Of a stretch of 64,000 nucleotides of DNA, positions 1 through 57,109 are shown piece after piece. The notes under the pieces were generated by a model. That model was given only the letters and a program-made list of their open reading frames with translations. It did no database searches and was not told the origin of the DNA. Positions within the stretch are counted from its first letter, which is position 1; each line of letters starts with the position of its first letter. The position numbers were made by a program, and so were the translations under genes. Origin of the DNA: Puia sp. (GTDB lineage Bacteria > Bacteroidota > Bacteroidia > Chitinophagales > Chitinophagaceae); NCBI GenBank assembly GCA_031292515.1, contig JARLGZ010000076.1, positions 124,001-188,000 on the forward strand, read 5' to 3'.

Positions 1-1221
1 AAAGGCCACCTTTACCCCCAGGAATTTGTTGATGAAATCTACGTATTCTTTCATCCTGGCAGGCAAGTTATTATAATTTTTTAAAGAAGTGATATCCGAT
101 TTCCAGCCTTCGAAGGATTCCAGGACGGGAACGATCGGCAGGCGGCTCATCTGGAAGGGGACTTCCGTGGTTTTCTGACCGTTCACTTCGTAGGCGGTGC
201 AGACTTTCAGCTCTTTGAATGCGTCCAGCACGTCGGCCTTTGTCATGACAATCTTTGTGACGCCGTTGATCATACAGGCGAATTTCAGGGCGACGAGGTC
301 GATCCAGCCGCAGCGACGGGGTCTGCCGGTCGTGGCGCCGAATTCGCTGCCTGTCTTCCGCAGTTCTTCCCCGGTTTCATCTTCCAGTTCAGTCGGGAAG
401 GGACCGCTGCCAACCCGCGTGCAATAAGCCTTGCTGACACCGATGACGTCGCGGATCAGCTGGGGGGCGACACCCAGCCCGGAACAAACGCCCGCGGATA
501 TGGTATTGGAGGACGTCACAAAGGGGAAGGTCCCGAAATCCACGTCCAGCATGCTACCCTGGGCTCCTTCCGCGAGCACTTTTTTCCCCTGGCTGATTCT
601 TTCGTTGATAAAGTATTCCCCGTTGACGATCTTGAAGGATCGCATAAACTCCAGGGCTTCGAAGAATTCTTCCTCCCACTCGGAAATGTCTTCATGGAAG
701 TTCAGCCCGTCCAGCAATTTCTGGTGTTTGAGGCGCAGTTTTATATACTGTGTAGTAAAGCTTTTGTCCAGCAAGTCCCCCACTCTCAGCCCATTCCGTC
801 CCGTCTTGTCCATATAGGCGGGGCCGATGCCTTTCAGGGTGGAACCGATCTTCTCGTGTCCTTTGGAAGTCTCGGAGGCTTTGTCCAGCGCCCGGTGCGT
901 CGGCAGGATCAGGTGCGCCCGCTGGGAGATATACAGGTTTTTGCGATAGTCCACGCCGAAGGCGGCCACCGAATTGCATTCTCTTTTCAGGGTCACGGGA
1001 TCCAGCACCACTCCATTCCCGATCAGGTTGGTCGTCTTTTCGTGAAAGATCCCCGAGGGGATCTGGTGCAATACAATCTTCTTATCATTTACGTAGAGCG
1101 TATGACCGGCGTTGGGTCCACCCTGGAAGCGGGCGATCAGGTCATAGCGGGGCGCAAAAAAATCCACGATCTTTCCTTTGCCTTCGTCGCCCCACTGGAG
1201 GCCTAAAATTACATCAACCAT
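1..1221 (-). CDS. purA: Adenylosuccinate synthetase, C-terminus cut by window edge
   Basis: The reverse strand reads from an ATG at 1221 through the left edge without a stop, giving 407 residues of a family that is usually about 420-430 long, so only the last residues are missing. It catalyses the GTP-dependent joining of IMP and aspartate, the first committed step from IMP to AMP, in the cytoplasm. The N-terminus MVDVILGLQWGDEGKGK is the PurA P-loop-like motif holding the catalytic Asp, followed by FQGGPNAGHT (the IMP/GTP loop with the catalytic His). Further in are GIGPAY and the TTGRPRRCGW signature near the C-terminal third. The start is supported by AAGGA five bases upstream. Transcribed in the same direction as the upstream rel gene with a 139-bp gap holding its own -7 element. 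Identification is secure. Confidence 0.97.
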   Translation of the reverse strand, partial: MVDVILGLQWGDEGKGKIVDFFAPRYDLIARFQGGPNAGHTLYVNDKKIVLHQIPSGIFHEKTTNLIGNGVVLDPVTLKRECNSVAAFGVDYRKNLYISQRAHLILPTHRALDKASETSKGHEKIGSTLKGIGPAYMDKTGRNGLRVGDLLDKSFTTQYIKLRLKHQKLLDGLNFHEDISEWEEEFFEALEFMRSFKIVNGEYFINERISQGKKVLAEGAQGSMLDVDFGTFPFVTSSNTISAGVCSGLGVAPQLIRDVIGVSKAYCTRVGSGPFPTELEDETGEELRKTGSEFGATTGRPRRCGWIDLVALKFACMINGVTKIVMTKADVLDAFKELKVCTAYEVNGQKTTEVPFQMSRLPIVPVLESFEGWKSDITSLKNYNNLPARMKEYVDFINKFLGVKVAF

Positions 1222-1254
1222 TATTCCTTATGATTTTTTATTCCTTATGATTTC
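1221..1254 (-). repeat. 17-bp tandem duplication of the purA ribosome-binding region
   Basis: Two adjacent 17-bp units (1221-1237 and 1238-1254) differ only at the last base. On the coding strand each unit carries the TAAGGAATAA core, so the purA Shine-Dalgarno-like AAGGA is present twice, 17 bases apart, with the inner copy correctly spaced from the ATG. Seen directly; any effect on translation is inference. Confidence 0.85.
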
Positions 1255-1324
1255 TGCGATTTGCAAGTGTCCTTATTGCCGGGTAAAAAAATCGCCCGGG
1301 CCGGTCCTGTTTGTCAAAACGGGG

Positions 1325-1332
1325 CAAAAATA
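1325..1332 (-). promoter_or_regulatory. Putative -7 element for purA
   Basis: The reverse strand reads TATTTTTG, an exact match to the Bacteroidota TAnnTTTG -7 element, about 100 bases before the purA start. No convincing TTG -33 element is seen at the normal distance, so this is a moderate call. Confidence 0.45.
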
Positions 1333-1360
1333 GGTGAAGAAAAAGAAATGCCGGATATTT

Positions 1361-3589: not shown

Positions 3590-3620
3590 ACCTTACGAAT
3601 TTACAAAATAGATGGCATAG

Positions 3621-3644
3621 TTGGCACGAAAACACCTACTTTTG
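3621..3644 (+). promoter_or_regulatory. Putative promoter of tRNA-Leu
   Basis: TACTTTTG at 3637-3644 matches the Bacteroidota -7 element TAnnTTTG exactly and would start transcription about 30 bases before the tRNA. A TTG at 3621-3623 could be the -33 element, but the 13-base spacing is shorter than the usual 17-23. Confidence 0.5.
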
Positions 3645-3680
3645 CAGGCCCCGGCGATGGCCGTCGGGCCGATGAGAGAA

Positions 3681-3762
3681 GCGGGCGTGGCGAAATTGGC
3701 AGACGCACCAGACTTAGGATCTGGCGCCGCAAGGCATGTAGGTTCGACCCCTATCGCCCGCA
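3681..3762 (+). tRNA. tRNA-Leu, anticodon UAG
   Basis: The 82-nt gene folds as a class II cloverleaf. The acceptor arms GCGGGCG (3681-3687) and CGCCCGC (3755-3761) pair perfectly, with discriminator A at 3762. The anticodon stem CCAGA/TCTGG encloses loop CTTAGGA with anticodon TAG at 3715-3717. A long variable arm and the GGTTCGACCC T-arm follow. It reads CUN leucine codons. CCA is not encoded; the next bases are CTCC. It stands alone between divergent rel and convergent msrA. Confidence 0.96.
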
Positions 3763-3802
3763 CTCCGGGATTGTCCGAAATCCCAAAATCGTTTACATCC
3801 GG

Positions 3803-3838
3803 AAAAGGCGGCCGAGAAAGGCGGCCTTTCTTTTTTTT
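3803..3838 (+). terminator. Rho-independent terminator after tRNA-Leu
   Basis: A GC-rich stem can form in two registers (GGCCG 3810-3814 with CGGCC 3822-3826, or AAAGGC 3804-3809 with GCCTTT 3824-3829) and is followed at once by a T-run at 3831-3838. It lies 40 bp after the tRNA and before the convergent msrA 3' end. Confidence 0.75.
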
Positions 3839-3887
3839 GGCAAGGTACTCCGTTGAAAACGGAGCAGACAATAGCCATCCGTGCGGA

Positions 3888-4573: not shown

Positions 4574-6583
4574 ATGGTCAATCGCCTGTTGCTGGTCTTC
4601 TCCATCCCGCTAGCATTTTCTACCATCCCGCTAGCGTTTTCTTCGATCCCGCCGGGTTTGTCTTCGGTCCCGCCGGCATTTTCAACGAATGGTCCCACAG
4701 CCGGCGCGGCCATCAGGGTCCCCGGACCGATCTGCATTCCCGGCATTCCCGGATCTGTCGGGGGCGCCGGCACGATCAACGTTCTCGAACCCATCATCCC
4801 CAATAAAGTCGCAGACCGCTATGTCCCGGCGCGGAATGAGGCGATCGAGGGCGTGTTGGGATACCGCCTGAACGTGAACCTGGAAAAGAGGCTTTTGCGG
4901 ATCGATTCGGCGATCCTGCTTTCCGGTTTCGAAAAGAGGCCCGGTTCCCAGACCTGGATCGGCGAGCATGTCGGCAAATTCCTGTTCTCTGCTTCGCAAA
5001 CCTACCGGTATAACCAGGATCCGCGTATCAAACAATTGATGGACGCCATGGTCAGGACTTATCTCTCCTGCCAGCTTCCGGACGGTTACCTGGGCACCTA
5101 CCTGCTCAAGGACCGCTGGACGGAATGGGATGTCTGGGCGCATAAATATGCCATTATCGGGCTGCTGAACTATTATTCCGTCACCGGTTATACGCCTGCT
5201 CTCGACGGAGCGAAGAAAGCCGCCGATCTTATCTGCGCGACTTTCGGGGACGAGCCGGGTAAGCGGGATCTCATGCCTGCCGGCTTCCACGAAGGCTTAG
5301 CCCCCGGCAGTATCCTTGAGCCGATGGTGGACCTCTACCGGTATACCGGCGATCCGAAATACCTGCATTTCTGCGAATATATCCTGCGCGCATTTGAGCA
5401 GCCCGACGGCCCTAAGATCATCAGCACGATCGAAAAATACGGGAACGTGACCAAGGTGGGAGATGCCAAGGCCTATGAGATGATCTCCTGTTTCCTGGGC
5501 ATCCTGAAATACTACCGGCTGACGGGTGACACCCGGTACCTGAAAGCCCTGGAAACGGCCTGGGAAGACATCCGTTCGAAGCGCATGTATATCACCGGTA
5601 CGGCGAGCGATCACGAGATCTTCCGGGGCGACCATGTGCTGCGGGCCGAAAACAAAGACGATATGGGGGAAGGCTGCGTGACGGTGACCTGGATCCAGTT
5701 CAACCTGCAGTTGCTGCAGATCACAGGAGACCGGAAATATTCCGAAGAGCTGGAGCGCTCGGTGTACAACCATCTTTTTGCCGCCGAAAACCCGCAGACG
5801 GGTTGCGTAAGCTACTACACGGCCCTGCAGGGCGCCAAGCCTTATAAATGCGACCAGGGCTACTCCTGCTGTCTTTCCAGCGTGCCACGCGGCATTTCGC
5901 TGATCCCCTCGATGGTATGGGGCAAGATCGACCATGTCTTCTCTGTGCTGCTGTATGAAGCAGGTACGGTGACCGATACGATCACTACCGCCGATCACCA
6001 GTCGATCACGCTGCACCTGGAGTCGGCTTCCGATTTTCCGGCTTCCGGCAAGCTGACATATACCGTGGTTCCTTCCGTCAGCGGCGATTTCCCGCTCAAT
6101 TTCCGGGTGCCCGAGTGGTCGGAAAATTTTACAGCCGGTGTCGGGACGGAGACCTACCACGGGGAAAAGGGCGCCCTGCTTCGGATCTCGCGAAACTGGA
6201 AGCCGGGTGACAAGATCGTCGTCAGCTTCGGGATACCGGTGAAGATCCTGCCGGGCGGACTGTCCTATCCGGGCAAGATCGCCTTCAAGAGAGGCCCGCA
6301 GGTCCTGGCTGTCGATGCGGCCCTGAATCCCGGGCTGGATTCGCTGGCGTCTTTGCGGGGTATCGTTTATACCGGATCGAAGATTTCGGAGAAAGGGTCA
6401 TGGAGTCCGGTCCTGCTTCCGGATGCCTCGGATAAGGTCCCCGCCGACTGGGGCTGGAAACAAGCCTATGCCGTCACGTGTCTGATCCATGACAAGCCCC
6501 GGGAAATCGTGCTGGTGCCCTTTGCGGAGGCGGGGCAGAAAGCCACGCCGTTGGAAGTCTGGATCCGTTCCGCCGCACGCTGA
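4574..6583 (+). CDS. GH127-family glycoside hydrolase (beta-L-arabinofuranosidase-like, DUF1680)
   Basis: A 669-residue probable secreted enzyme. The (alpha/alpha)6-barrel part begins near residue 75 after an odd, proline-rich N-terminus. The family's zinc/nucleophile set is visible: Glu366-x-Cys368 in MGEGCVTVTW, and the adjacent pair Cys432-Cys433 in GYSCCLSSVPRG, matching the Glu-x-Cys and Cys-Cys ligands of the characterised Bifidobacterium enzyme HypBA1, whose first paired Cys is the nucleophile. Glu348 in SDHEIFRG is a candidate acid/base. Substrate is probably beta-linked arabinofuranose in plant glycans, though the family has other activities. A hydrophobic start could serve as a signal peptide, but it is built from four heptapeptide repeats instead of a typical h-region. 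Followed 41 bp later by the asparaginase-like gene on the same strand. Confidence 0.85.
   Translation: MVNRLLLVFSIPLAFSTIPLAFSSIPPGLSSVPPAFSTNGPTAGAAIRVPGPICIPGIPGSVGGAGTINVLEPIIPNKVADRYVPARNEAIEGVLGYRLNVNLEKRLLRIDSAILLSGFEKRPGSQTWIGEHVGKFLFSASQTYRYNQDPRIKQLMDAMVRTYLSCQLPDGYLGTYLLKDRWTEWDVWAHKYAIIGLLNYYSVTGYTPALDGAKKAADLICATFGDEPGKRDLMPAGFHEGLAPGSILEPMVDLYRYTGDPKYLHFCEYILRAFEQPDGPKIISTIEKYGNVTKVGDAKAYEMISCFLGILKYYRLTGDTRYLKALETAWEDIRSKRMYITGTASDHEIFRGDHVLRAENKDDMGEGCVTVTWIQFNLQLLQITGDRKYSEELERSVYNHLFAAENPQTGCVSYYTALQGAKPYKCDQGYSCCLSSVPRGISLIPSMVWGKIDHVFSVLLYEAGTVTDTITTADHQSITLHLESASDFPASGKLTYTVVPSVSGDFPLNFRVPEWSENFTAGVGTETYHGEKGALLRISRNWKPGDKIVVSFGIPVKILPGGLSYPGKIAFKRGPQVLAVDAALNPGLDSLASLRGIVYTGSKISEKGSWSPVLLPDASDKVPADWGWKQAYAVTCLIHDKPREIVLVPFAEAGQKATPLEVWIRSAAR
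4603..4686 (+). repeat. Four 21-bp tandem repeats at the 5' end of the GH127 gene
   Basis: Units start at 4603, 4624, 4645 and 4666. The first two differ at two or three positions, the last two are more diverged. They encode heptads of the pattern S-I-P-L-A-F-S, forming the hydrophobic N-terminus of the protein. Seen directly. Confidence 0.85.
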
Positions 6584-13633: not shown

Positions 13634-13970
13634 GGATGGATTTTAGGATTTGGATTGCATGACAACTATCCGTCATAATCAAAATAATTGCCAATTCCAA
13701 ATAACTGAAAATCAACAGGTTAGTTCTGTGATTTTCAGGCTTCATTCCCATAATCGGAAAAGAGGTGCAAAAATGGGACGGGTTTCGAAAACAGGAAGGA
13801 GTCGCCGGGTGGGAAGAGGGCCGGACGGGGGTGCCGGATGGGAGGGTGTTCCCTGATGGAAGGTCTACCCGGCGAGGAAGGAAGGGTCTACCGGTGAGGA
13901 GGAAGAGACTACGGGCAGGCAGGGCGGTCTTTGAAGGCGAAGATTGCGGAAAGCAAGAGGGGGTGATGGG
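13634..13970. other. Intergenic region upstream of the T9SS gene
   Basis: No gene supported. The part near 13634-13760 is AT-rich and probably holds the promoter of the T9SS gene, but no exact TAnnTTTG is seen on the reverse strand. The stretch 13780-13960 is GGA-rich with a diverged direct repeat (GAAGGTCTACCCG near 13860, GAAGGGTCTACCGG near 13884). Confidence 0.4.
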
Positions 13971-14050
13971 CACCATGAGAAGCGTATGGGTACCATGAGG
14001 AGCGTGTGAGCGCTATGAGGAGTGTATGAGCGCTATGAGGAGCGTACGAT
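13971..14050. repeat. Four 20-bp tandem repeats spanning the histidine kinase stop codon
   Basis: Units begin at 13971, 13991, 14011 and 14031; the consensus is close to CGCTATGAGGAGTGTATGAG. The unit at 14031-14050 contains the kinase stop codon (14033-14035) and last codons, and the other three lie downstream, so the array looks like slippage copies of the gene's own 3' end. Confidence 0.85.
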
Positions 14051-17684: not shown

Positions 17685-17709
17685 AAGCGTCTTTTCCCGG
17701 AGGGTGTTT

Positions 17710-17805
17710 GGTTTATGTTGTGGTCGATTTGTGTTCTGTTCGGTTTATGTTGTGGTCGATTTGTGTTCTGTTCGGTTTATGTCCTGGTCGGTTTGTCTTC
17801 TGGTC
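17710..17805. repeat. Three 32-bp tandem repeats upstream of the FtsX permease
   Basis: Units start at 17710, 17742 and 17774; the first two are nearly identical and the third is diverged. Each unit itself splits into two similar 16-bp halves beginning GGTTTATGTTGTGGTC and GATTTGTGTTCTGTTC. The array ends 25 bp before the permease start codon, so it lies in its leader or promoter. Confidence 0.85.
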
Positions 17806-18433
17806 CGTTTATATAGTGCTGTCTTTGGGTATCCAAGAAGATGCCGGTTTTTATTGAGCTTGTTTTCAATGAATTAGGCTGCGAATATGGGTGGGACTGT
17901 ACGGTTTTAATACAGCGGGTGTTTCGCATTCGGGCAGTGAGGTTGCAATGGGGGTAGGGATGAAGTCGTGATTGTGTGCAAGGTTGTAACGATGCGCCGG
18001 AATAGCCATGTCACTCCGTCGCTGTACCTCTCCCAAATTGGCCAGCGTGATTTTGTGACTTGCGCTTGCCGGGCTATTTTGTGCTGTGCGGGGCGGTCTG
18101 GGCCGGGCTAAGGCTCCTCCGCGACATCGCATACCGGCGCAGGCCGTGATTACGGATAGGAGAAAGAGACAAGTGGGATGGGACACTGGGATATCAGGGA
18201 TCATTTCATAGAATAAAAGGGCTCCGGGAGGGACCGGGCAAGGAAAGAACCCGATTAGACGATCTGCCGGGCTAGAAGATCTGCAATTTTCGGACAATCC
18301 GGTTGGTGAAATAACCCTGCGATAAGTGAAACACCGTATGTATCGGAAACGGACAATGCAGCAGGCGGGGCAGATCTGATATATTGATAATCAAGGATTA
18401 AGAAGCTGGTATTTTTTTTTGTCGACTTTTTAT
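17806..18433. other. Gene-poor spacer between divergent permeases
   Basis: About 630 bp without a supported gene. A 143-codon frame on the reverse strand (17866-18297) has a hydrophobic stretch but is proline/arginine rich, matches no family I know and has no good start context. The last 60 bp before 18434 are AT-rich and probably hold the promoter of the rightward permease, though no exact TAnnTTTG is visible. Confidence 0.4.
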
Positions 18434-32352: not shown

Positions 32353-32432
32353 ACGATAGCATTTTTCCGCAATAGCATTTGTCTGCAATAGTATTAGCCT
32401 GTGATAGTATTTGTCTACGATTGAATTTGTCC
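32353..32432 (-). repeat. Five 16-bp tandem repeats abutting the xdhC start codon
   Basis: Units begin at 32353, 32369, 32385, 32401 and 32417, each resembling GCAATAGTATTTGTCT, with 3-6 differences between copies. The first unit touches the xdhC ATG (32350-32352), so the array occupies the whole leader and probably the promoter of the molybdenum operon. Period is exact, with no gaps. Confidence 0.9.
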
Positions 32433-33528: not shown

Positions 33529-33548
33529 ATCTGCTTATCTGTGATGAC

Positions 33549-33716
33549 TTATCTGTGATGACGTCTGAAACGTTCCCTGACGATGGGTTTAGCAGGATCG
33601 CCATTCTTTCCGGCAGTCCTCATCCCGGTCGCATCGCCCGCCGTATGATGTATTACCGGTTGTGATTTTGCTATGCTGACGCAGAAGAGCAGCAGTACAA
33701 TCGCTATCCATCGCAT
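33549..33716 (-). CDS. Small secreted peptide of unknown function
   Basis: A 55-residue frame from ATG 33716, too short to judge by family. MRWIAIVLLLFCVSIAKSQ is a convincing signal peptide; the remaining 36 residues are Arg/His/Gly-rich and end RERFRRHHR. A longer frame begins at 33776 but adds no sensible sequence. It sits 20 bp upstream of the Tat isomerase gene on the same strand and may be co-transcribed. Real coding is likely but not certain. Confidence 0.5.
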   Translation of the reverse strand: MRWIAIVLLLFCVSIAKSQPVIHHTAGDATGMRTAGKNGDPAKPIVRERFRRHHR

Positions 33717-33776: not shown

Positions 33777-34027
33777 TTATTTAGCTCTTTTTGTCATTTT
33801 TTTCTCCCGGTTTTTCTATTCGTTTCCACTTAGCAGGCCTTGCTCACCTGCTCATTTTCTGCCATTGGGTCATTTTCCCATTTTCCCCACTTGCCCATTT
33901 TCGGCCGTTGAGTCATTTCCGCTGATTTGTCCATTTTCGCTGATTTGCGTATTTCGCCCTATCCGGTTCACCCGCCCGCCAACCTTCCCCGCCGTTCGGT
34001 TTATGCGGGAGTTCGGCTGCTCCCCGC
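33777..34027. repeat. Low-complexity intergenic stretch with short direct repeats
   Basis: T/C-rich spacer with repeated cores CCATTTTC (several copies between 33850 and 33950) and a diverged 19-bp direct repeat starting CCGCTGATTTGTCC and CGCTGATTTGCG (about 33918-33956). No gene or promoter element identified. Confidence 0.45.
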
Positions 34028-37955: not shown

Positions 37956-38061
37956 AAAGGGTGAAACTTCTCCGGAAAAGCGGACACTTCTCCTGAAAAG
38001 CAAACTTCTCCTATTGGGAGAACGGTTTTCCGGGAAAATAATTATCCCCTTCCCGCATCTT

Positions 38062-38115
38062 TCTCAGACCTCTTGTTTTTCTCAGGCCTTTTGACCTTCT
38101 CAGACCTCTTTCCGC
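38062..38115. repeat. Three 18-bp tandem repeats across the ybbP stop codon
   Basis: Units start at 38062, 38080 and 38098, sharing TCTCAGACCTCTT or a close variant at exact 18-bp spacing. The unit at 38098 contains the permease stop codon (38100-38102) and last codons; the other two lie downstream. Confidence 0.85.
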
Positions 38116-40667
38116 AGGATTTCGAGCGGGGGCCGGTTGAGTACGCTCCGGCTGTTCAGCAAGCCGATCGTGATCGTCAGCAGGCAGATGCTTGCGAACA
38201 GGAGTGCGATGGGCGCCGCGTGCGGAGAAAAAGAGCTTTCGAAACTATATCGTGCCAGGAACCAGCTGGTCGCCAGGGATAGGAGGATCCCTGTGCCCGC
38301 CGCCAGGGCACCCAGGAAAAAATATTCGAGGGTGGCGATGATGAGGATCTGCCGGCGTCGGGCCCCGAGGGTGCGCAGCAGGACCGTCTCCTGGATGCGT
38401 TGAAATTTGCTGATGAGGACCGAAGCGATGAGCACGATCAGTCCCGTGAGCATGCTAAAGCCCGCCATAAAACGGATTACGAAGCCGATCTTGTCCAGCA
38501 CTTCGTCCAGTATGCTCAATACCAGGCCCAGGTCGATCACGGAGACACCCGAAAACTGCTGTACCACCGCCTTTTGAAAACGGGCGGAGACTTCGACGGA
38601 GGGAACCCGGGCAATGAGTATATGGAACTGCGGCGCCTGTTCCAGCACACCGCCGGGGAACACGATATGGAAATTGGTTTCCAGCCTCCGGGAGTTTACC
38701 GTCCGGATGCTTCCTATCACCGTCGTCAGGGGGAGGCCCTGTACGTTAAAAAGCAGGGTATCTCCGAGGCCGGCATGGATCATGGCCCTTGCATATTCCT
38801 CTTCCAGGGAAACATAGATGATGTCCTGCGGCGACCGGACAGGAGTGCCCAATTTCCCGGACAGGATCTTCTCGGTGCCGGTCAGGGTATCGCGATAGGT
38901 GGCTCTCGCTTCTTCATCGAAGACCCAGCGGCGGTCATGATGGTCTACGCTATCTTCACGGGCCCGGTCCGGAAGGCGTCTCCTGATCTGCGTCAATCGC
39001 ATACTCACGAGCGGCGCGTCCTGCAGGATGGTCACGCCGTTGTGGATGGCCAGGCCGACGACTCCTTTCAGTTCGCTGTTCTGGACGTCGAACAGGACCA
39101 TATTCCCCTGGTTTTTGCCGGACGATATCGCAATACGGTCGACGAGCATCTGTTGCACGAAATAAAGGGTGCCGATGAAAGTCGTCCCCAGACCGATCGT
39201 AACGATAAGGATCAGGGTTTGGTTGTTAGGCCGGTACAGGTTGGCAAACCCCTGTCTCCAGAGATAGTTCCAGGAAGCGGGGAAAAAATGTCGTACCGAC
39301 CACATGAGCAGCCGGGCCACTCCCGCCAGCAGGAGAAATGCGGCGAACAGGCTGCCGCAAAAGATAAATGCCTTTGTCCATGCATGCATCTGCCAAAAAG
39401 AGAAGATGGCCACAAAGAGAAAGATGGTGGTGTAGACCACCCCTTTCAAAGGGTCCCGGTTTCTTCGGGGCGGCTCGAAAGAGCGACGCAGGGTGTATAA
39501 GGGGGAGATGGACCGGATGGATAGCAAGGGCAGCAGGGCAAACAAAATGGAGATCGTCAGCCCGGTTATCATTCCCTGGCCGATGGAGCGGGGTGAGAGG
39601 TGGGTGGCGGCTTCCAGCGGCAGGAGGTCCCTGAACACGACGGGCAGTATCCGTTGGATCACCAGACCCAGCGAGACACCCGCGACAGAACCCAACAGCC
39701 CGATGCAGGCTATCTGTATGAGATAGATCAAAAAAGCCTGGCGGACCTTAACGCCCAGGCAACGCAGGACGGCGATCCCGTCTATCTTCTCGCGGATATA
39801 AATATGGACGGCGCTTCCCACGCCGATGCATCCCATCAGCAGGGCGATGAAGCTGATCAGGGTCAGGAATTCGGTAAAATCTCCGAAGGCGCGGCTCATA
39901 CGTGTCTTTCGCGATTCGATGGTCTCATAACGCAGGTGGGCCTTCCCGAGCCGCGAAGTCAGGGAATCCATGAATCTGCCGATATCTGTCGGCGAGGGGT
40001 ACTGGTAATAGTATTGGTATTGGATCCTGCTCCCTCTTTGCTGAAGACCCGCCTGTGAAAGGTACCGGAGGGGGATATAGACCGGGGGAGCTACTGTCAT
40101 GGACAGTTCGGTGCTTCCGGGAGCTTTGTTCAAAATGCCGGCGATGGCGAAATTCAGGGAGCCGATCCGGATGGAATCGCCGACCTGTGCGCCGTACTGA
40201 AGGAGCAGGCCCTTGTCGACCAATGCCTGTCGTTCGTTTCTGAACGAGTGGCCGGCTTCCGTGGGGGTCGTTTCGAGCGAGCCATAGAAGGGATATTCAC
40301 CGTCGAGGGCGCGCACCTGGACCAGGCGGCTTTCCCCGCTCCTGACAAAATAGATCATCGATGCAAAATTGTCTTCCCGGGCATGGCGGTTAGGAACGGT
40401 ATCGGGTATGGCCAGTTCCGCGGGTGTCAGGGGCCGGTTGGACCGGATGACCAGGTCGGCGCCCACCAGCACCTTCGCCTGGTCATCGATGCCGTTGCGA
40501 AGGTCTTCACCAAACGACAAGGTAGCTACCAGGGCGGCGATCCCAAGAATAATAGAGGAGACGAAAAGTAGGAGGCGGCCGCGGTTCCTGCGACTATCGC
40601 GCCAGGCCATGAGGAAGAGCCAACGGATGCCGGGCGAACTATTTTCAAGCGGTTTGTCTTTTTTCAT
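38100..40667 (-). CDS. ybbP: ABC transporter permease, YbbP-type FtsX family
   Basis: An 855-residue inner-membrane permease. An N-terminal helix (WRDSRRNRGRLLLFVSSIILGIAALVATLS) is followed by a MacB-like periplasmic region, three FtsX helices with IDGIAVLRCLGVKVRQA, a middle four-helix block (about 420-525), a second periplasmic region and a C-terminal FtsX core with RIQETVLLRTLGARRRQ. Ten-helix YbbP proteins of this size pair with the ATPase YbbA. The TAA of the ATPase gene is immediately followed by this gene's ATG, so the two are translated together. The divergent tesA-like esterase gene repeats the E. coli tesA-ybbA-ybbP arrangement. Substrate unproven; export or extraction of lipids or hydrophobic products is suspected. 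Confidence 0.9.
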   Translation of the reverse strand: MKKDKPLENSSPGIRWLFLMAWRDSRRNRGRLLLFVSSIILGIAALVATLSFGEDLRNGIDDQAKVLVGADLVIRSNRPLTPAELAIPDTVPNRHAREDNFASMIYFVRSGESRLVQVRALDGEYPFYGSLETTPTEAGHSFRNERQALVDKGLLLQYGAQVGDSIRIGSLNFAIAGILNKAPGSTELSMTVAPPVYIPLRYLSQAGLQQRGSRIQYQYYYQYPSPTDIGRFMDSLTSRLGKAHLRYETIESRKTRMSRAFGDFTEFLTLISFIALLMGCIGVGSAVHIYIREKIDGIAVLRCLGVKVRQAFLIYLIQIACIGLLGSVAGVSLGLVIQRILPVVFRDLLPLEAATHLSPRSIGQGMITGLTISILFALLPLLSIRSISPLYTLRRSFEPPRRNRDPLKGVVYTTIFLFVAIFSFWQMHAWTKAFIFCGSLFAAFLLLAGVARLLMWSVRHFFPASWNYLWRQGFANLYRPNNQTLILIVTIGLGTTFIGTLYFVQQMLVDRIAISSGKNQGNMVLFDVQNSELKGVVGLAIHNGVTILQDAPLVSMRLTQIRRRLPDRAREDSVDHHDRRWVFDEEARATYRDTLTGTEKILSGKLGTPVRSPQDIIYVSLEEEYARAMIHAGLGDTLLFNVQGLPLTTVIGSIRTVNSRRLETNFHIVFPGGVLEQAPQFHILIARVPSVEVSARFQKAVVQQFSGVSVIDLGLVLSILDEVLDKIGFVIRFMAGFSMLTGLIVLIASVLISKFQRIQETVLLRTLGARRRQILIIATLEYFFLGALAAGTGILLSLATSWFLARYSFESSFSPHAAPIALLFASICLLTITIGLLNSRSVLNRPPLEILRKEV

Positions 40668-41420: not shown

Positions 41421-42284
41421 ATGGGTATGTCGGTATTTTATAAACAGGATGGAGTGCCCGGGGTAGTTGGGTCGTTCCCGGCGGTCATGCCATTGTTGCT
41501 GACCTTACTGCTAACCCTGTCTTTTATAACGGCCTGCCATTCGGGCGGTAATCAGCGAGCCCTGGGCGGATCCCCGGAGCCAACGGGATCGGGCGGGTCG
41601 ACGAAGCCAGGGAGTTCAGCGGAGGCAGCGGGCGGGGGGAACTCCAAAAATGCCATAGATTCAGCGGCTACCACGGGTGGCGTGCGCGCCGGGAGTAAGG
41701 GAGGACCGGAAGGATCGGGCAAAAAAACCATTGTTTTTTTTGGGAACAGCATTACGGCAGGTTATGGCGTGGATGCCGAAGAGGCTTTCCCATCGCTGAT
41801 CCGGCAGCGGATCGACTCGCTCCATTTACCGTATGAGGTCGTCAATGCGGGTTCGAGCGGCGAGACGTCTTCGGGCGGAAGGAGCAGGATCGGCTGGATC
41901 CTTCGTAGACGGGTAGACGTCTTTGTCCTGGAATTAGGTGGCAATGACGGGCTGCGCGGTATCCCGGTGACGGCGACGGCTGCCAACCTGCAGGCGATCC
42001 TGGATTCCGTAAAAGCCAGCTATCCGGCGGCCCGGCTGGTATTGGCGGGGATGCAGATACCTCCCAGCATGGGCGGTCAGTACAGTACCGACTTTAAGGC
42101 GGTCTTTCCACGGCTGGCGGAGAAAAATAAGGCGGCGCTGATTCCTTTTATCCTGGAGGGTGTGGGCGGCGTTCCGGCTTTAAACCAGGGAGATGGGATC
42201 CATCCTACCGCGCGAGGTCACCGGATCGTCGCGGAGAATGTCTGGAGGGTCATCGCTCCGCTTTTAACCCCGAAGGCACGGTAA
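41421..42284 (+). CDS. tesA: TesA-like SGNH esterase/lysophospholipase, lipoprotein
   Basis: A 287-residue SGNH hydrolase. A hydrophobic segment ends in the lipobox FITAC (Cys39), so the mature protein is probably lipid-anchored in the periplasm; ATG codons at 41427 and 41487 are alternative starts. Residues 40-100 are a Gly/Ser/Pro linker. The catalytic domain resembles E. coli TesA: block I FFGNSITAGYG with Ser110 (GNS instead of GDS), GSSGETSSGGRSR, block III LGGND with Asn175, and the Asp258-x-x-His261 pair in GDGIHPTARGH. E. coli TesA is a thioesterase, lysophospholipase and arylesterase. The divergent ybbA-ybbP neighbours strengthen this assignment. Confidence 0.9.
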   Translation: MGMSVFYKQDGVPGVVGSFPAVMPLLLTLLLTLSFITACHSGGNQRALGGSPEPTGSGGSTKPGSSAEAAGGGNSKNAIDSAATTGGVRAGSKGGPEGSGKKTIVFFGNSITAGYGVDAEEAFPSLIRQRIDSLHLPYEVVNAGSSGETSSGGRSRIGWILRRRVDVFVLELGGNDGLRGIPVTATAANLQAILDSVKASYPAARLVLAGMQIPPSMGGQYSTDFKAVFPRLAEKNKAALIPFILEGVGGVPALNQGDGIHPTARGHRIVAENVWRVIAPLLTPKAR

Positions 42285-42304
42285 CACCCGAAGGCGCGGT
42301 AGCG
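42269..42304. repeat. 18-bp tandem duplication across the tesA stop codon
   Basis: Units CCCGAAGGCACGGTAACA (42269-42286) and CCCGAAGGCGCGGTAGCG (42287-42304). The first contains the stop codon TAA (42282-42284); the second reproduces it as TAG, again in the same relative place. Confidence 0.8.
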
Positions 42305-46319: not shown

Positions 46320-46326
46320 CGGATGG

Positions 46327-47103: not shown

Positions 47104-49794
47104 ATGCAAAAAGCAATGACTCGTCCTTTCCGTGCCTTTTTTAACTCCGCAGTCTGCGGCCTCCTGTTAGCCGGATGCGGCCTCTTCTTCACCGGTTGCC
47201 ACAATTCACAATCAGCCTGTGAGCCGGGAGAAAAAAGCAAGGCCCTCGTTTCCTTCGATTCCGTACTCAACAGTCTTCATTGGCCAAAGGATATCCGGGC
47301 GAATGCGTTTTCGGGGCCTGCGCTTACCCCGAGTCCCGCCTGTCTGGCCGTGGCGCCTACGGGCGAGGTCTTTGTGGGAGTGGATATGATCGGCTCGCTG
47401 GGCAAGGAGCCCGGCAAGGGGATGATCATGAGGCTGGTGGATTGCAATCACGACGGGATCGTCGATAGTCATACGGTGTTTGCAAAGGTCGACAATCCCC
47501 GCGGGATCTTTTCGGTAGGGAACCGGCTCTTCGTGCTGCATACGGCTTTTGCAAAAGACAGCGCCACCGGGATGGACCTGGTGATGTTTGAAGACAAGGA
47601 TCATGATGGCATCGCCGATGGACCGCCCAAGACGCTGATCCGTCACATGAGCAATCCCAATTATCTGAAAAGCCGGGGCACCGATCATGCGACCAACGGG
47701 ATCCGGATGGGTATCGACGGGTGGATCTATATTGCCGTGGGGGATTTTGGTTTCCACGAGGCCGTCGGCAGCGATGATTCGACTCTGACGATGCTGGGTG
47801 GCGGGATCGTCAGGGTGCGGCCTGACGGAACGGAGATGGAGGTCTATACGCATGGCCTGCGCAATATCTATGATGTCGCGATCGATCCCTATATGAATAT
47901 TTTTACGCGGGACAATACCAATGACGGTGGCGGCTGGAATATCCGGTTCCATCACCAGATCCAGACCAGCGAATTCGGGTATCCTGTCCTGTTCCAGCAT
48001 TTCACCGATGAGATCATCCCGGCCCTGGCGGATCTGGGTGGCGGCTCGGGCACGGGCACGCTATTCATGGACGACAGCACCTGGCCGGCCGCCTACAACC
48101 ACGTGCCGATGACGGCCGATTGGGGCCGGAGCGAGCTCTATATCCACCGGCTCACTCCGGATTCCGGGAGTTTCACCCAGCAGCAGGAGGATTTCCTGGC
48201 ACTGCCGCAGATCACCGATCTCGATGTCGACGGATCCGGTTGTCTCTACCTGTCGGCCTGGGATGGCGCTGGTTATTCCGGTGATTCCAGCAAGGGTTTT
48301 GTCGTCCGTGCCGTGCCTGCCAACTGGGTCTACAAGCCCTTTCCCGATCTGGCTGCCGCCTCGCTGCCGGAACTCGAGTCTTTGCTGAAGTCCGCCAACG
48401 GCGTGGCCCGGTTGCACGCCCAGCAGGCGCTGCTCCAGCGGCCGACTACGGATGCGACGCAAGCCGGATGGGATGTCGCCGCCGACAAGAGCCTGCCTTT
48501 GTATGCCCGTGTAGCGGGTCTGTATACCTATGCGCAGGCGGCGGGGGAAAGCGGCATCAAAAATCTCGTACAGCTGGTTTCGGAAGAGCCGATGCGGGAG
48601 TTCGCCTTACGGGCGCTGGCGGACCGCAAACCTTTTTTGAAGACGGTTCCGATCGAACCCTTTTTGGATGGGCTGAAGGATACTTCGCGACGGGTGGAGA
48701 TAGCTTCGATTATCGGCCTGGGGCGCCTGGGACGCCCGGAGGCGGCGACCGCCTTGTTGCAGATACCGGTGCCTGCCTCGTTTGTCGCCCCTGCCAACGG
48801 AAAAGAGGGGCCCCATGCCACCCCGAACTCCGCCATCATCCCTCCTCATCTTGCGGTGCGGGCGCTGGTGAGCCTCAATGCCGTCGATGCCTGCGTGGCG
48901 GCTATCGGTACGCCTCATTCGACACTGGCGCTTTGGGCGCTTCGTTATATGCACGATCCCCGTGCCGTAAACGGTTTGCTGGCCGCCTACCGGACTTCCA
49001 CCGACAAAGTATTGAAAGGCCAGATCCTTTCCACGCTGGCGCGGCTTTATCATGAGGAAGCTCCCTATGATGGCACCTGGTGGTGGAGCACCCGGCCGGA
49101 CTCACACGGACCGTACTACCAGCCTATCGACTGGGCTTCGTCCGATACAATCAAGGCTTTCCTGATGGAGGAATTTAAAAAGTCGAATGCAGCGGGCAAG
49201 AAAGCATTTGCCGATCTCAATGGCCGGCTCCGGCTGGGTATCCATCCTTTCGGCGGCGATGAAGAACCGGTGGTCATCGACAAGGAGACCAAGATCGACC
49301 TGGAAAAGATCCGGAATAAAAAGGGTCAGATCGGGAGTTCGTCCATCGAAGACATCATGCTGGCGATGGCCGCTCTCAAGGGGAACCCGGACAGCGGAAA
49401 GGTCATTTTTGTCCGGCAGGGATGTGTGGCCTGTCATAGCATAAAAAAAGGCGAGCTGCTAAAGGGACCTTATATGGGTCAGATCGGTTCGATCATGAGC
49501 CGCAAGCAGATCGCCGAGTCGATCCTGCAGCCCAGTGCGTCGATTGCGCAGGGTTTCGCGACCAACCAGGTCACGACCAAGGACGGGAAGACGCTGATGG
49601 GTTTTGTCACCGAAGAGTCGTCGGAGAAGATCGTCCTGCGGGATATCACCGGGGCCGTGCATACGATCCCGATGAAAGATATCCAGAAGCGTGAGGAATT
49701 GAAGACCTCGATGATGCCGACGGGAATGGCCAGTGCATTGTCGTATGAAGAGTTTGCTTCACTGATCACGTATTTGTCACAGCGGAAGGAGTAG
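47104..49794 (+). CDS. Lipoprotein with sugar-dehydrogenase-like propeller, HEAT repeats and c-type heme
   Basis: An 896-residue periplasmic or outer-surface lipoprotein. The start at 47104 gives a signal with lipobox LLAGC (Cys25); FFTGC (Cys32) is a second option. Residues about 60-440 form a six-bladed propeller of the glucose/sorbosone dehydrogenase-type (FVGVDMIGSLGKEPGKGMIMRLVD, RNIYDVAIDPYMNIFTRDNTNDGGGWN). Residues about 450-680 contain HEAT-like helical pairs. A C-terminal cytochrome c domain has the heme motif CVACH (Cys774, Cys777, His778) and a likely Met ligand in MMPTGM. This is the PVC-type heme-binding architecture, where a dehydrogenase passes electrons to its own heme. The exact substrate is unknown. 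Confidence 0.85.
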   Translation: MQKAMTRPFRAFFNSAVCGLLLAGCGLFFTGCHNSQSACEPGEKSKALVSFDSVLNSLHWPKDIRANAFSGPALTPSPACLAVAPTGEVFVGVDMIGSLGKEPGKGMIMRLVDCNHDGIVDSHTVFAKVDNPRGIFSVGNRLFVLHTAFAKDSATGMDLVMFEDKDHDGIADGPPKTLIRHMSNPNYLKSRGTDHATNGIRMGIDGWIYIAVGDFGFHEAVGSDDSTLTMLGGGIVRVRPDGTEMEVYTHGLRNIYDVAIDPYMNIFTRDNTNDGGGWNIRFHHQIQTSEFGYPVLFQHFTDEIIPALADLGGGSGTGTLFMDDSTWPAAYNHVPMTADWGRSELYIHRLTPDSGSFTQQQEDFLALPQITDLDVDGSGCLYLSAWDGAGYSGDSSKGFVVRAVPANWVYKPFPDLAAASLPELESLLKSANGVARLHAQQALLQRPTTDATQAGWDVAADKSLPLYARVAGLYTYAQAAGESGIKNLVQLVSEEPMREFALRALADRKPFLKTVPIEPFLDGLKDTSRRVEIASIIGLGRLGRPEAATALLQIPVPASFVAPANGKEGPHATPNSAIIPPHLAVRALVSLNAVDACVAAIGTPHSTLALWALRYMHDPRAVNGLLAAYRTSTDKVLKGQILSTLARLYHEEAPYDGTWWWSTRPDSHGPYYQPIDWASSDTIKAFLMEEFKKSNAAGKKAFADLNGRLRLGIHPFGGDEEPVVIDKETKIDLEKIRNKKGQIGSSSIEDIMLAMAALKGNPDSGKVIFVRQGCVACHSIKKGELLKGPYMGQIGSIMSRKQIAESILQPSASIAQGFATNQVTTKDGKTLMGFVTEESSEKIVLRDITGAVHTIPMKDIQKREELKTSMMPTGMASALSYEEFASLITYLSQRKE

Positions 49795-49799
49795 GGATG

Positions 49800-50352
49800 T
49801 GAAAGGAAGAAGCAGTATGCGATATGACAAGGAATTGGATCGGGGTCAATTTGAGGGTAGCGATATGGCCTGTCACTTTGAGATGTCTTTTATGCGCCTC
49901 CCGGGCGACCGCGATCATGTCTTCCCGGGTAGCATGGGTATACATTTTGAAAGAGGTGCAGCCCCTGTCGGCCCAGAAATTGACCATGGCCGTGACATCC
50001 ATGTCGGGTCCGATCAACATCCCGGCTTGTATCATCCTGTTGATCGCCAGGTCGGTCTGCGGCTCGATGCTTCCTCCTGTCCTGATCGTCGTGGCGCCCC
50101 CGGCCAGGTACATGCGTGGAAATGAGTAGGGCATTTCCGCCACGTTAAAAAAATCGCCCATTTCCATCGTGTAATACAAATGTTCGTGCAGCATCACCAT
50201 GCCCGGGATCACTGTCTTGCCGGTGCAGATTTTCACGACGGCCCCTTCGGGTATTTTAATACCGCCTTTGTCACCCACGCCGGCGATGAGGCGATCGTGC
50301 AGGAGACCGAGAATATGACTCCGAAAACGAGCTTGGTGAAGAAGTATTTCAT
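49800..50352 (-). pseudogene. Amidohydrolase pseudogene with internal deletions
   Basis: Reading backwards from 50352, MKYFFTKLVFGVIFSVSC is a signal peptide, but it lies in another frame from the next recognisable part. That part, LIAGVGDKGGIKIPEGAVVKICTGKTVIPGMVMLHEHLYYTM, is the start of a metal-dependent amidohydrolase with its HEH metal site, so a deletion with frame change joins them. FFNVAEMPYSFPRMYLAGGATTIRTGG and IGPDMDVTA then run straight into MVNFWADRGCTSFKMYTHATREDMI, where intact relatives have a linking stretch of roughly 20-30 residues (my recollection). After LKVTGHIA the homology ends; the C-terminal half with the remaining metal ligands is gone. Confidence 0.8.
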
Positions 50353-50407: not shown

Positions 50408-50460
50408 GTATAGCTGTAATTTTCTGATGGCTGCCGGCGACCAATAATGTGTCCGAACCT

Positions 50461-50500
50461 CTTTTTGAAGTCTTTTGTAATCTTTTTGAAGCTTTTGAAT
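50461..50500 (+). repeat. 21-bp tandem duplication abutting the oxidoreductase start codon
   Basis: CTTTTTGAAG at 50461 recurs at 50482, each followed by a T/G/A-rich block; the second copy is two bases shorter and ends exactly at the ATG (50501). Confidence 0.7.
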
Positions 50501-54921: not shown

Positions 54922-54976
54922 AAGACAAGGTTTCGTCCTCATTTAATATCTTGCCGGGCTAAATCATAGCAGGCAA

Positions 54977-55500
54977 ATGAAGACCGGAGAGGGAAGCCCG
55001 TACGTTTTGAGAACCAGGCAGCATTTTGAGATCCTTATGGCCTGCGGGGCGTAGCGGCGCTGGCGGTCGTGACCTTCCATTTTATGGAGATCGTCTTTTC
55101 GGACTATAGTAAAAACTTTATCGGGCATGGGTTTTTAGCGGTCGACTTCTTTTTCTGCCTGTCAGGGTTTGTAATCGCCTATGCCTATGATGGCCGTATT
55201 GAAAAGATGGGGCTTGTGGCGTTTTTCAGGGCCAGGTTGGGCGCCGGGGCCAGGCTGACGCCGGGGCTCAAAAGACTTTGTGTGTTCTCGGGGAAGATAT
55301 CTTATCCTCTGTATTTGACACACTATGCCGTGCTCTGGATGTTTGGCAATTATTATGGCACCCACAAACCGGGAACGGGTTAGTTGTTCCTTATAATACC
55401 GGGGGCTATCGTTCTGTTGCTGGCCTTCGCCTATTTTGTGATGAAGGTCTATGATATACCGGTCAGGAGATTTTTGGGCAGGAGGAAGGGCAATCGCTGA
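54977..55500 (+). pseudogene. Acyltransferase-3 (OafA/YrhL-like) pseudogene
   Basis: The start at 54977 reads into HFEIL, then a one-base loss near 55036 shifts frame; restoring it gives DGLRGVAALAVVTFHF, the family's catalytic His-region. The next frame continues MEIVFSDYSKNFIGHGFLAVDFFFCLSGFVIAYAY. After about 75 residues the sequence jumps straight to LKRLCVFSGKISYPLYLTHYAVLWMF, normally about 250 residues further, so most of the membrane part is deleted. An in-frame TAG at 55381-55383 then precedes LFLIIPGAIVLLLAFAYFVMKVYDIPVRRFLG and a TGA at 55500. Three independent lesions make function impossible. Confidence 0.9.
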
Positions 55501-56160
55501 CTATTGACCCTGACTCAGTGGGCGTATCTGCAAATTCTTCCAATCCCCGGCGGATCCATTGCCTACCCAATACCCTATTTGCCGCCCGGTCGACTGAACC
55601 AGCGGGGCAACGGTCAGGCATGGGGTTTCGTTTCCATCGACAAAGACGGCTATTTTTTGAGCGGTCACCACGATCTTCGCGTGAAACCAGGCATTGGGAT
55701 CGGGGGCCGCTGAAATGGGCTGTTCATATTTGCCGGGATAGCCGGCCCTTAATTTCGGCCAGTCGTATTTCGGGCCGGCGATGTATTGTACTGCATGCGT
55801 CTTTCTTACCGCATCGGCTGACCGAAAATTGAAAGGGCGGAAATAGACGGCCTCATAAGTCGTATCATTCGATCCATGAAAAGCAAAACCTACAAAGCTT
55901 TGTTGAAAGGCATCCTTCCCTTTTATGTCGAATTCGATAGCACCCTCTTTGAATTCCCGGCCTTTGATCCAGGCGATCCCGACTCCATCCGCTTCGTTTA
56001 AATGGATAGTTCCTGTTCCCTCCTCGCTGGAAAGGGTTCGATTCACGACGTTATAAGTATCCTGCGGCGTCTTCTCCTGACCAAGGGCTGTTTGCTGACC
56101 AATGGTTAACGAATAGGTCACCAGGGAGATGGCAAGGGAGGTGAAGGTCTTTATGGGCAT
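55501..56160 (-). CDS. Secreted concanavalin/DUF1080-like protein
   Basis: A 219-residue exported protein with signal peptide MPIKTFTSLAISLVTYSLTIGQQTALGQ. The mature part is a single beta-jellyroll: GAIEFDIKGKDAFQQSFVGFAFHGSNDTTYEAVYFRPFNF, HAVQYIAGPKYDWPKLRAGYPGKYEQPI, WFHAKIVVTAQKIAVFVDGNETPCLTV, and IGYWVGNGSAGDWKNLQI. It resembles family-16-like/DUF1080 carbohydrate-binding or disaccharide-hydrolase modules, but no catalytic residues can be assigned. Its stop codon directly abuts the stop of the acyltransferase pseudogene (convergent). Confidence 0.7.
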   Translation of the reverse strand: MPIKTFTSLAISLVTYSLTIGQQTALGQEKTPQDTYNVVNRTLSSEEGTGTIHLNEADGVGIAWIKGREFKEGAIEFDIKGKDAFQQSFVGFAFHGSNDTTYEAVYFRPFNFRSADAVRKTHAVQYIAGPKYDWPKLRAGYPGKYEQPISAAPDPNAWFHAKIVVTAQKIAVFVDGNETPCLTVAPLVQSTGRQIGYWVGNGSAGDWKNLQIRPLSQGQ

Positions 56161-56272
56161 AGTTTATACGGCGATATAAATTTGTGCAACGGTATAAAAC
56201 TATTGCTTCTCTTGTTCATCGCATAAATAATTCGACGAATTCGTCCAGGGCTTCGACTAAATCAACCTTTTT

Positions 56273-57043
56273 CTACAACCGGGGCAGGGTGAGGCCCCCG
56301 TCTATCATGATGACCTGGCCGGTCGAATAGGGGAAATTTCGGAGGGCCAGTGCGCTTACCGCCTTTCCCACATCATCCGGGTATCCCCAGCGTTTCTGCA
56401 GGCAGAGGCCTCCTTCTATGAGTTTGTCATATTTTTCCTTTACGCCGGCCGTCATGTCCGTGTTGATGATGCCGGGACGAAGCTCATAAACCGGGATATC
56501 ATATTCACCCAGGCGGACGGCGAGAAGTTGGGTCACCATGCTGAGACCTGCTTTGGAGATACAGTATTCCCCGCGGTTTATGGAAGCGACGGTGGCGGAG
56601 ATGGAAGAGATATTGATGATACACCCGGCAAAATTACCGTCGTCATTTTTCTGTCCGATCATCCAATTGGCGGCCTGCTGAGCGAGAAAAAAGGCGCCTT
56701 TCAGGTTGACGGACAATACCTGGTCAAAACTGTCCTCGCTCATGGTGAGGATGTCCCGTCTTTCTTTTGGCGCGACACCCGCATTGTTTACCAATACGTG
56801 CAGTCTGCCGAAATACTCCCCCACCTGCTGCAGCATTTTGGTCCTATCCGCCGCAGAGCCGGTATCCCCCTGACAGTAGAATACATCGGCTCCTGTTGCG
56901 CGAAGCTCCTCTATTGTATCGGTTACTGCCCCCGCCGGGCGCACCCCATTGACGGCTATGTCAAACCCATCCGCCGCCAGGTGTCTGGCGATGCTATACC
57001 CGATGCCACGGGTGCCTCCGGTAATAAATGCGACTTTTTTCAT
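56273..57043 (-). CDS. Short-chain dehydrogenase/reductase
   Basis: A 256-residue NAD(P)-dependent oxidoreductase. The cofactor motif TGGTRGIG is at 8-15 and NNAG at 86-89; the catalytic set is Ser146/147, Tyr160 and Lys164 (YCISK). DGGLTLPRL ends the protein. Normal length. Last gene of a five-gene operon with Gfo/Idh/MocA oxidoreductase, isomerase, GH88-like enzyme and MFS transporter, so a sugar or sugar-acid ketone/alcohol is the likely substrate rather than a fatty-acid intermediate. Arg12 after TGGT hints at NADP preference (inference). Confidence 0.9.
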   Translation of the reverse strand: MKKVAFITGGTRGIGYSIARHLAADGFDIAVNGVRPAGAVTDTIEELRATGADVFYCQGDTGSAADRTKMLQQVGEYFGRLHVLVNNAGVAPKERRDILTMSEDSFDQVLSVNLKGAFFLAQQAANWMIGQKNDDGNFAGCIINISSISATVASINRGEYCISKAGLSMVTQLLAVRLGEYDIPVYELRPGIINTDMTAGVKEKYDKLIEGGLCLQKRWGYPDDVGKAVSALALRNFPYSTGQVIMIDGGLTLPRL

Positions 57044-57071
57044 GTTCTTTGTTTTTAATTCACGGTCTTTT

Positions 57072-57109
57072 TTTCCGATTCATCTCTTTCTTTCCGATTC
57101 ATCTCTTTC
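57072..57109. repeat. Perfect 19-bp tandem duplication upstream of the SDR gene
   Basis: TTTCCGATTCATCTCTTTC occurs at 57072-57090 and 57091-57109 with no mismatch, in the 110-bp gap between the Gfo/Idh/MocA and SDR genes, ending 28 bp before the SDR start. Confidence 0.9.

What the first reader, a model, noticed from the sequence alone, without database searches (positions are those of the whole stretch)
1221..57109. Short tandem duplications recur at gene boundaries across the window
At least eleven unrelated short tandem arrays (units 16, 17, 18, 19, 20, 21 and 32 bp) sit at gene edges: touching start codons (purA 1221, xdhC 32353, oxidoreductase 50461), in leaders (17710, 57072), in the first or mature N-terminal codons of secreted proteins (4603, 23071, 28569), and across stop codons (13971, 38062, 42269). 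They share no sequence, so they are not a dispersed element; the position is what they share. This suggests a genome with frequent slippage-type duplications, tolerated or selected at gene edges, possibly as a source of expression variation.
Basis: partly seen in the sequence, partly recalled or inferred. Interest (0 to 1): 0.72.

Follow-up and report, generated by a model that had tools for sequence, protein, structure and literature searches.

The report
Short tandem duplications between genes
This soil bacterium's genome carries several times more short (roughly 9-22 letter) stutter-like DNA duplications than most relatives examined; they pile up between genes mainly because duplications inside genes are weeded out, not because they look like switches at gene edges.

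Summary
In 864 kb of the same 7.34-Mb Chitinophagaceae draft (Puia/Flavitalea-like) there are 144 non-heptamer arrays, 16.7 per 100 kb, against 0.8-3.7 in the four best-sampled congeners and 0.7 in E. coli K-12; one congener, G015, is equally dense, mostly with 7-bp-based arrays. Arrays touching non-coding DNA are 13 times denser per base than arrays inside genes. Inside genes 41 of 49 units are multiples of three, elsewhere 33 of 95. So gene-edge position is largely purifying selection against indels. With that controlled, arrays are not enriched near starts (40 vs 41.8 expected) but are near stops (58 vs 37.5). Where tested they are lineage-specific gains (9 of 9 purA leaders and 4 of 4 enzyme orthologues lack them). 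Direct, not inverted, repeats are in excess. MutS1, MutS2, PolA, RecJ and Ku genes are present. What raised the duplication load is unknown; nothing found supports an expression switch.

The parts
1221..1253 (.). 17-bp perfect duplication directly before the purA start codon (purA on minus strand, 1-1221)
   Evidence: TRF; PF00709; absent in 9 of 9 relatives examined
4598..4676 (.). 21-bp array in the N-terminal (hydrophobic, signal-like) codons of the GH127-like protein 4574-6583
13858..13916 (.). 21/22-bp array in the gap before gene 14033-15067(-) stop
13966..14046 (.). 20-bp x4.1 array across the stop codon of the PAS/HATPase protein 14033-15067(-)
17705..17812 (.). 32-bp x3.4 array (nested 16-bp period) in a divergent gap between two ADOP-like permease genes
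   Evidence: only two short marginal matches elsewhere in own genome
20835..20867 (.).
23077..23144 (.). 21-bp x3.2 in-frame array in an N-terminal linker absent from four orthologues
23731..23805 (.).
28569..28607 (.). 18-bp array about 18-31 codons into gene 27246-28661(-)
32356..32395 (.). 16-bp array at the start region of xdhC-like gene 31165-32352(-); start codon uncertain (alternative TTG at 32388)
33534..33562 (.). 14-bp perfect duplication, non-coding by the gene calls (just upstream of the longest-ORF start of 32542-33528(-))
33914..33948 (.). 18-bp duplication, gap region (overlaps only a weak 34-aa call)
37963..38012 (.). 20-bp array upstream of gene 37263-37955(-)
38059..38110 (.). 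18-bp x2.9 array across the stop codon of the YbbP-like permease 38100-40667(-)
39392..39427 (.). 17-bp imperfect array deep inside gene 38100-40667(-); not a multiple of three
42265..42301 (.). 18-bp array across the stop codon of the GDSL lipase-like gene ending 42284
47155..47199 (.). 21-bp duplication in the first codons of the CxxCH haem-binding-domain protein
49785..49834 (.).
50460..50496 (.). weak array (period 10, score 46) in the first codons of the molybdopterin-binding oxidoreductase 50447-52690
55229..55267 (.). 17-bp array inside a small called ORF 55084-55383
57066..57111 (.). 19-bp x2.4 array between the Gfo/Idh/MocA-like gene (57154-58299-) and the SDR-like gene (56273-57043-)
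   Evidence: no such array in three relatives

Best explanation
The arrays are independent, lineage-specific small tandem duplications, most with units of about 9-22 bp, that have accumulated unusually in this Chitinophagaceae lineage. They arise along the DNA and are then filtered: in genes almost only in-frame copies in tolerant places (signal peptides, linkers) survive, whereas gaps between genes, above all just behind stop codons, keep them. Shown: the excess, the reading-frame filter, the lack of a start-codon preference, the lineage specificity at the loci tested, the excess of direct and not inverted repeats. Inferred: that the duplication rate is raised (rather than retention alone), and the route of birth: short misalignment loops or staggered-break fill-in too long for mismatch repair to correct, with later slippage adding third and further copies.
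For: Density 16.7 per 100 kb (bootstrap 13.3-20.4; 144 arrays in 864 kb after dropping 11 heptamer arrays) against G009 3.7, G002 1.5, G007 0.8 and G014 3.0; binomial P 3e-9, 5e-10, 3e-7, 2e-4. Coding 6.5 per 100 kb, touching non-coding 85.5 per 100 kb of non-coding DNA; unit a multiple of three in 41 of 49 coding arrays (P 5e-13 against one third) but 33 of 95 others. Exact non-coding duplications of 11-80 bp: 26 in 111 kb against 0 in 53 kb of five congeners. That call shows no excess at unit 5 (104 vs 126 expected), 1.6-fold at 6, 6.8-fold at 7 (heptamers included), and large excess from 9 to about 20. Close direct repeats in gaps 14.8 per 10 kb against 4.4 in six congeners, inverted repeats 4.4 against 8.5. 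Median gap 113.5 bp against 55-85 in five of six congeners (G024: 202). Unit absent from 9 of 9 purA leaders and 4 of 4 orthologues. No clustering (35 of 144 with a neighbour within 500 bp against 33.4 expected).
Against: Gene calls are home-made and starts uncertain; the divergent-gap deficit weakens to P 0.037 with most-upstream starts. The stop-side excess is not explained by simple tolerance of non-coding DNA. Sampling was not random (long contigs, a contiguous 340 kb of C137) and covers about 12 percent of the genome. The contrast is smaller against 80 family loci around spoT/relA: 101 arrays in 1.50 Mb, 6.7 per 100 kb, heptamers not removed, P. dinghuensis 5 in 22 kb there. Some congeners are higher: G016 10.0 (2 in 20 kb), G021 7.5, G024 6.7, and G015 18.7, where 9 of 11 arrays have period 14 or 21. 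No rate was measured; longer retention or weaker selection could give the same load. TRF at score 50 hardly sees units under 13 bp.
Confidence: 0.7

Rival explanations
1. One reading: arrays at gene edges are selected as tuners or switches of expression, changing copy number by slippage in leaders and at starts.
For: Some sit in leaders (1221, 17705, 57066); 12 of 48 complete-gene coding arrays lie in the first 150 bp against 7.0 expected.
Against: No start-side excess once class is fixed; lowest density in divergent gaps; stop side favoured; most copies diverged (20 of 144 at 100 percent); not shared by the relatives examined.
Confidence: 0.06
2. Birth by staggered nicks or breaks 9-20 nt apart, filled in and rejoined by end joining (Ku), giving homology-free duplications.
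For: 22 of 37 exact duplications have 0-1 bp of junction homology (15 have none); units drop sharply above about 20 bp; Ku present. In mouse and human cells fill-in of staggered breaks with Ku-dependent joining gives small tandem duplications (PMC8355091, passages).
Against: 13 of 37 show 3 bp or more against 7 percent expected, which points to misalignment for part; Ku is in 23 of 33 congeners including low-density G002, G007, G009, G014, so it is not the variable. Heptamer arrays look like slippage.
Confidence: 0.3
3. Polymerase slippage or template misalignment at short homologies, with loops too long for MutS.
For: Excess of 3+ bp junction homology; no excess at 5-bp units and rising excess from 6-7 bp; MutS1 present, and mismatch repair loses efficiency with loop length (PMC4060949, passages); multi-copy arrays and a 7-mer family.
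Against: Most exact duplications lack useful homology; no missing MutS2, PolA or RecJ gene.
Confidence: 0.45
4. Not a raised rate but longer retention: weak purging of non-coding DNA lets ordinary duplications persist.
For: Gaps longer than in five of six congeners; many arrays are diverged, hence old.
Against: Exact, presumably young, duplications are in excess too (26 against 0); inverted repeats are not.
Confidence: 0.3
5. Assembly or sequencing artefact.
For: Draft of 285 contigs.
Against: Reading-frame filter 41 of 49, diverged copies, in-frame insertions in linkers.
Confidence: 0.02

Closest known systems
Close direct repeats / 10-mers repeated within 50 nt in prokaryotic intergenic DNA (PMC4060949, passages read)
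   Same: Over-represented in gaps and weakly under-represented in genes in most prokaryotes; this is the general kind to which these arrays belong.
   Different: Here units are mostly immediate tandems of about 9-22 bp and the load is several-fold that of most congeners sampled.
Long simple sequence repeats of 5-11 nt, heptamers above all (Mrazek, as described in PMC4679880, passages read)
   Same: Sporadic, genome-specific enrichment; multiples of three inside genes. The ACTSACY family of this genome fits it.
   Different: The window arrays have longer units, share no sequence and mostly 2-3 copies.
TAACTGA intergenic heptamers of Beggiatoaceae, Cyanobacteria and some Bacteroidetes (PMC4679880, passages read)
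   Same: Intergenic, heptameric, in a few genomes only.
   Different: One fixed sequence mostly just before start codons; window arrays are unrelated to each other and not start-enriched.
Small tandem duplications from fill-in of staggered breaks in mammalian cells (PMC8355091, passages read); similar short insertions in rice and human lineages (recalled, not read)
   Same: Homology-poor short tandem duplications.
   Different: Eukaryotic factors (CST, Pol alpha-primase); bacterial equivalent not shown.
Phase-variable VNTRs
   Same: Tandem copies near genes.
   Different: No start or promoter bias, copies diverged, no copy-number variation shown.

Membership tests
Close direct repeats / short tandem duplications | Two or more adjacent direct copies beyond composition expectation | tested here: met
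   80 arrays against 2 in a dinucleotide shuffle; exact duplications far over a Markov-3 model
Close direct repeats / short tandem duplications | Intergenic excess and frame filter in genes | tested here: met
   85.5 against 6.5 per 100 kb; 41 of 49 in-frame inside genes
Dispersed element (REP, MITE and the like) | Shared sequence between sites | tested here: not met
   apart from one heptamer cluster (7 arrays) and one pair, 71 of 80 arrays shared no 11-mer with another array; no window array clustered
Phase-variable expression repeats | Enrichment at starts or promoters beyond non-coding location | tested here: not met
   near starts 40 against 41.8, 38 against 39.0
Phase-variable expression repeats | Copy-number variation within a population | not testable with these tools
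   No reads or sister strains
Slippage-born duplications | Junction microhomology above chance | tested here: inconclusive
   13 of 37 with 3+ bp (7 percent expected), yet 22 of 37 with 0-1 bp
Ku-dependent fill-in duplications | Ku present where load is high and absent where low | tested here: not met
   Ku in G000 and also in low-density G002, G007, G009, G014
Mismatch-repair-deficient mutator | MutS1 missing | tested here: not met
   MutS1 open frame present. MutL not searched

The most novel reading that the evidence does not exclude
This lineage has a heritable excess of a specific mutation class, largely homology-free tandem duplications of about 9-22 bp, strong enough that its intergenic DNA and protein linkers have been growing by micro-duplication, perhaps focused behind stop codons by transcription termination or its collisions with replication.
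Probability: 0.3. Interest if true: 0.62.

Novelty: new variant of a known kind. Interest (0 to 1): 0.42.

Why it matters
If the rate is truly raised, a culturable family with high- and low-load congeners would allow a direct search for what sets the rate of small tandem duplications in bacteria, a mutation class that mismatch repair misses and that can lengthen gaps and protein linkers. The stop-side excess would tie that class to transcription ends. If only retention differs, it is still a clean example of selection placing repeats at gene edges without any function there, a caution against reading position as regulation.

Tried and rejected
Dispersed element: rejected for the window arrays. 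Loss of a known repair gene: MutS1, MutS2, PolA, RecJ and Ku are all found; PolA of own and G009 is longer between domains than in three congeners aligned, but G009 has a low load, so this was dropped. MutL, RecG, SbcCD, LigD, RadA and other repair genes were not searched. Clustering into hot spots: none. Homologues for the window's non-coding arrays are rarely alignable: the purA leader (9 relatives aligned, picked from the first nine of 24 purA hits) and the 57-kb gap (3 relatives) were usable. Rfam gave only the tRNA.

Literature: searches (0 papers) found no description of such a load in Chitinophagaceae or of bacterial Ku fill-in duplications; the library lacks most subscription papers, so this is weak evidence of absence. 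Passages only were read of PMC4060949, PMC4679880 and PMC8355091; other papers were seen as listings. Rice and human-lineage tandem insertions and the general phase-variation picture are recalled.

Rows dropped before counts: arrays flagged as ACTSACY-type heptamers by a loose pattern (11 in own, 0 in the other genomes); arrays with period under 10 or over 100; overlapping TRF rows merged to the best; gene calls scoring 8 or less. L167 (1.4 kb) was left out. could assign 92 of the 95 arrays touching non-coding DNA to a gap and 48 of 49 coding arrays to a complete gene over 300 bp.
Full report
What the window is. It is G000:C205:124001-188000 of a 7.34-Mb draft in 285 contigs. Its RelA/SpoT protein is 94 percent identical to that of Flavitalea sp. 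BT771 and 91 percent to Puia dinghuensis, so it is a Chitinophagaceae of that lineage.

The observation. Shuffled sequence gives almost none. Names were checked: PurA, GH127-like enzyme, PAS/HATPase protein, XdhC, GDSL lipase-like, molybdopterin-binding oxidoreductase, SDR and Gfo/Idh/MocA enzymes; ADOP-like and YbbP-like permeases and a CxxCH haem-binding-domain protein. The start codons of the xdhC-like gene and of the oxidoreductase are uncertain.

Is the genome unusual? I sampled 864 kb (window) and called genes with a simple hexamer model of my own. 144 arrays remained after 11 heptamer arrays were set aside: 16.7 per 100 kb, bootstrap 13.3-20.4. The four best-sampled congeners give 3.7 (11 in 300 kb), 1.5 (3 in 200 kb), 0.8 (1 in 120 kb) and 3.0 (3 in 100 kb), binomial P from 5e-10 to 2e-4. 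Other congeners, with 11-90 kb each, run from 0 to 10.0, except G015 at 18.7, where 9 of 11 arrays have period 14 or 21 and look heptamer-based. Same-family G033 and same-order G036, G041 and G051 give 5.0, 5.0, 5.0 and 0; E. coli K-12 gives 1 in 150 kb. Against this, 80 loci round spoT/relA from the wider family average 6.7 per 100 kb (101 arrays, 1.50 Mb, heptamers included), with 5 in 22 kb in P. dinghuensis. So the excess is about 2.5-fold over that family locus and 4.5- to 20-fold over the four well-sampled congeners. The window itself is denser (31) than the first 400-kb sample (15).

Unit size. 131 of 144 periods are 11-27 bp, though TRF at this score hardly sees shorter two-copy units. 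Exact duplications in non-coding DNA against a Markov-3 model show no excess at 5 bp (104 vs 126), some at 6 (51 vs 32), strong at 7 (56 vs 8, heptamers included), and from 9 to 19 bp 34 observed where under one was expected, then a single one at 32 up to the limit of 80. Five congeners gave none of 11 bp or more in 53 kb of non-coding DNA; this genome gave 26 in 111 kb.

Why gene edges? Arrays wholly in genes: 49 in 753 kb; arrays touching non-coding DNA: 95 for 111 kb. Inside genes 41 of 49 units are multiples of three; outside, 33 of 95, one third as chance gives. That is purifying selection on reading frame. It also argues strongly against an assembly artefact. Under uniform placement 28 arrays should lie within 50 bp of a gene end and 78 do; with class held fixed 67.5 are expected (P 0.02), and the difference is all at stops: 58 against 37.5 +- 5.1, while starts give 40 against 41.8. 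With most-upstream starts: stops 51 against 35.7 +- 4.6 (P 0.003), starts 38 against 39.0. Co-directional gaps hold 10.7 arrays per 10 kb, convergent 8.1, divergent 4.4 (P 0.009; P 0.037 with most-upstream starts). Arrays crossing a gene boundary are fewer than random placement gives (24 against 36.1 +- 4.4, P 0.003). Inside genes there is a modest lean to the first 150 bp (12 of 48 against 7.0), where signal peptides and linkers lie.

Are they gains? The 17-bp unit before purA is single or absent in 9 of 9 relatives aligned; one of them (L006) has a different 19-bp array of its own behind the relA stop. The promoter-like TATTTTTGCC stretch is recognisable in these leaders by eye (reading it as a promoter is recalled knowledge of Bacteroidota), and the duplication lies downstream of it. 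The 19-bp array at 57 kb has no counterpart in three relatives, one of which has an unrelated 48-bp array. The 18-bp array at 23731 lies in a 36-residue insertion missing from four orthologues, and the 21-bp array at 23077 in an N-terminal linker missing from the same four.

More than tandem arrays. 10-mers repeated within 50 nt are 14.8 per 10 kb of gaps against 4.4 in six congeners (6.3 against 3.0 after masking the arrays), while inverted repeats are rarer, 4.4 against 8.5. Median gap length is 113.5 bp against 60, 72, 71, 55 and 85 in G009, G002, G007, G022 and G029; G024 is longer at 202. This fits gaps growing by direct duplication, an inference.

Mechanism. Of 37 exact two-copy duplications, 15 have no junction homology and 22 have 0-1 bp, but 13 have 3 bp or more where 7 percent is expected. 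So neither pure slippage nor pure fill-in fits; I favour birth by either route, with growth of arrays by slippage. MutS1, MutS2, PolA, RecJ and Ku genes are present and Ku does not track the load. Mismatch repair is inefficient on long loops (PMC4060949, passages), which suits the lower size bound. What raised the load here, and why stops attract arrays, remain open.

Verdict. A real and quantitatively unusual property of this genome, of a known general kind; the positional claim is mostly explained by selection; the regulatory reading is not supported.

Noticed in passing
G000 genome-wide (e.g. L088:5969-6028, L092:3390-3422, L099:13028-13078); none found in the window: Dispersed heptamer family ACT[C/G]AC[T/C]: the three-unit pattern has 325 matches in this genome against 18 for the reversed control; 30 of 32 congeners have none, G019 has 1 and G027 has 5.
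   Followed up: partly
L251-L253 (G015): A congener rich in several different heptamer-type arrays (GCGTTYA-, AATATTC-like), suggesting genome-specific heptamer families in this lineage.
   Followed up: partly
G002, G007, G024, G032: 24, 27, 14 and 14 MutS domain V matches against 5 in own genome; many are open frames of about 440-460 aa, some lying side by side. A lineage-specific expansion of MutS-like ATPases, function unknown.
   Followed up: no
L152:8583-8696 (G016): 48-bp x2.8 array following the orthologue of gene 57154-58299 that repeats the last codons and stop region of that gene.
   Followed up: no
L006, gap behind relA: Its own 19-bp x2.7 array behind the relA stop codon: an independent duplication in the same gap as the window's purA-leader array.
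   Followed up: partly
L102:6311-6482: 19-bp unit x9.1 intergenic array, the longest in the first 464-kb sample.
   Followed up: no
L262 / L263: PolA of this genome and of G009 carries a longer Ala/Gly/Pro-rich stretch between domains than in G002, G007 and G014.
   Followed up: no
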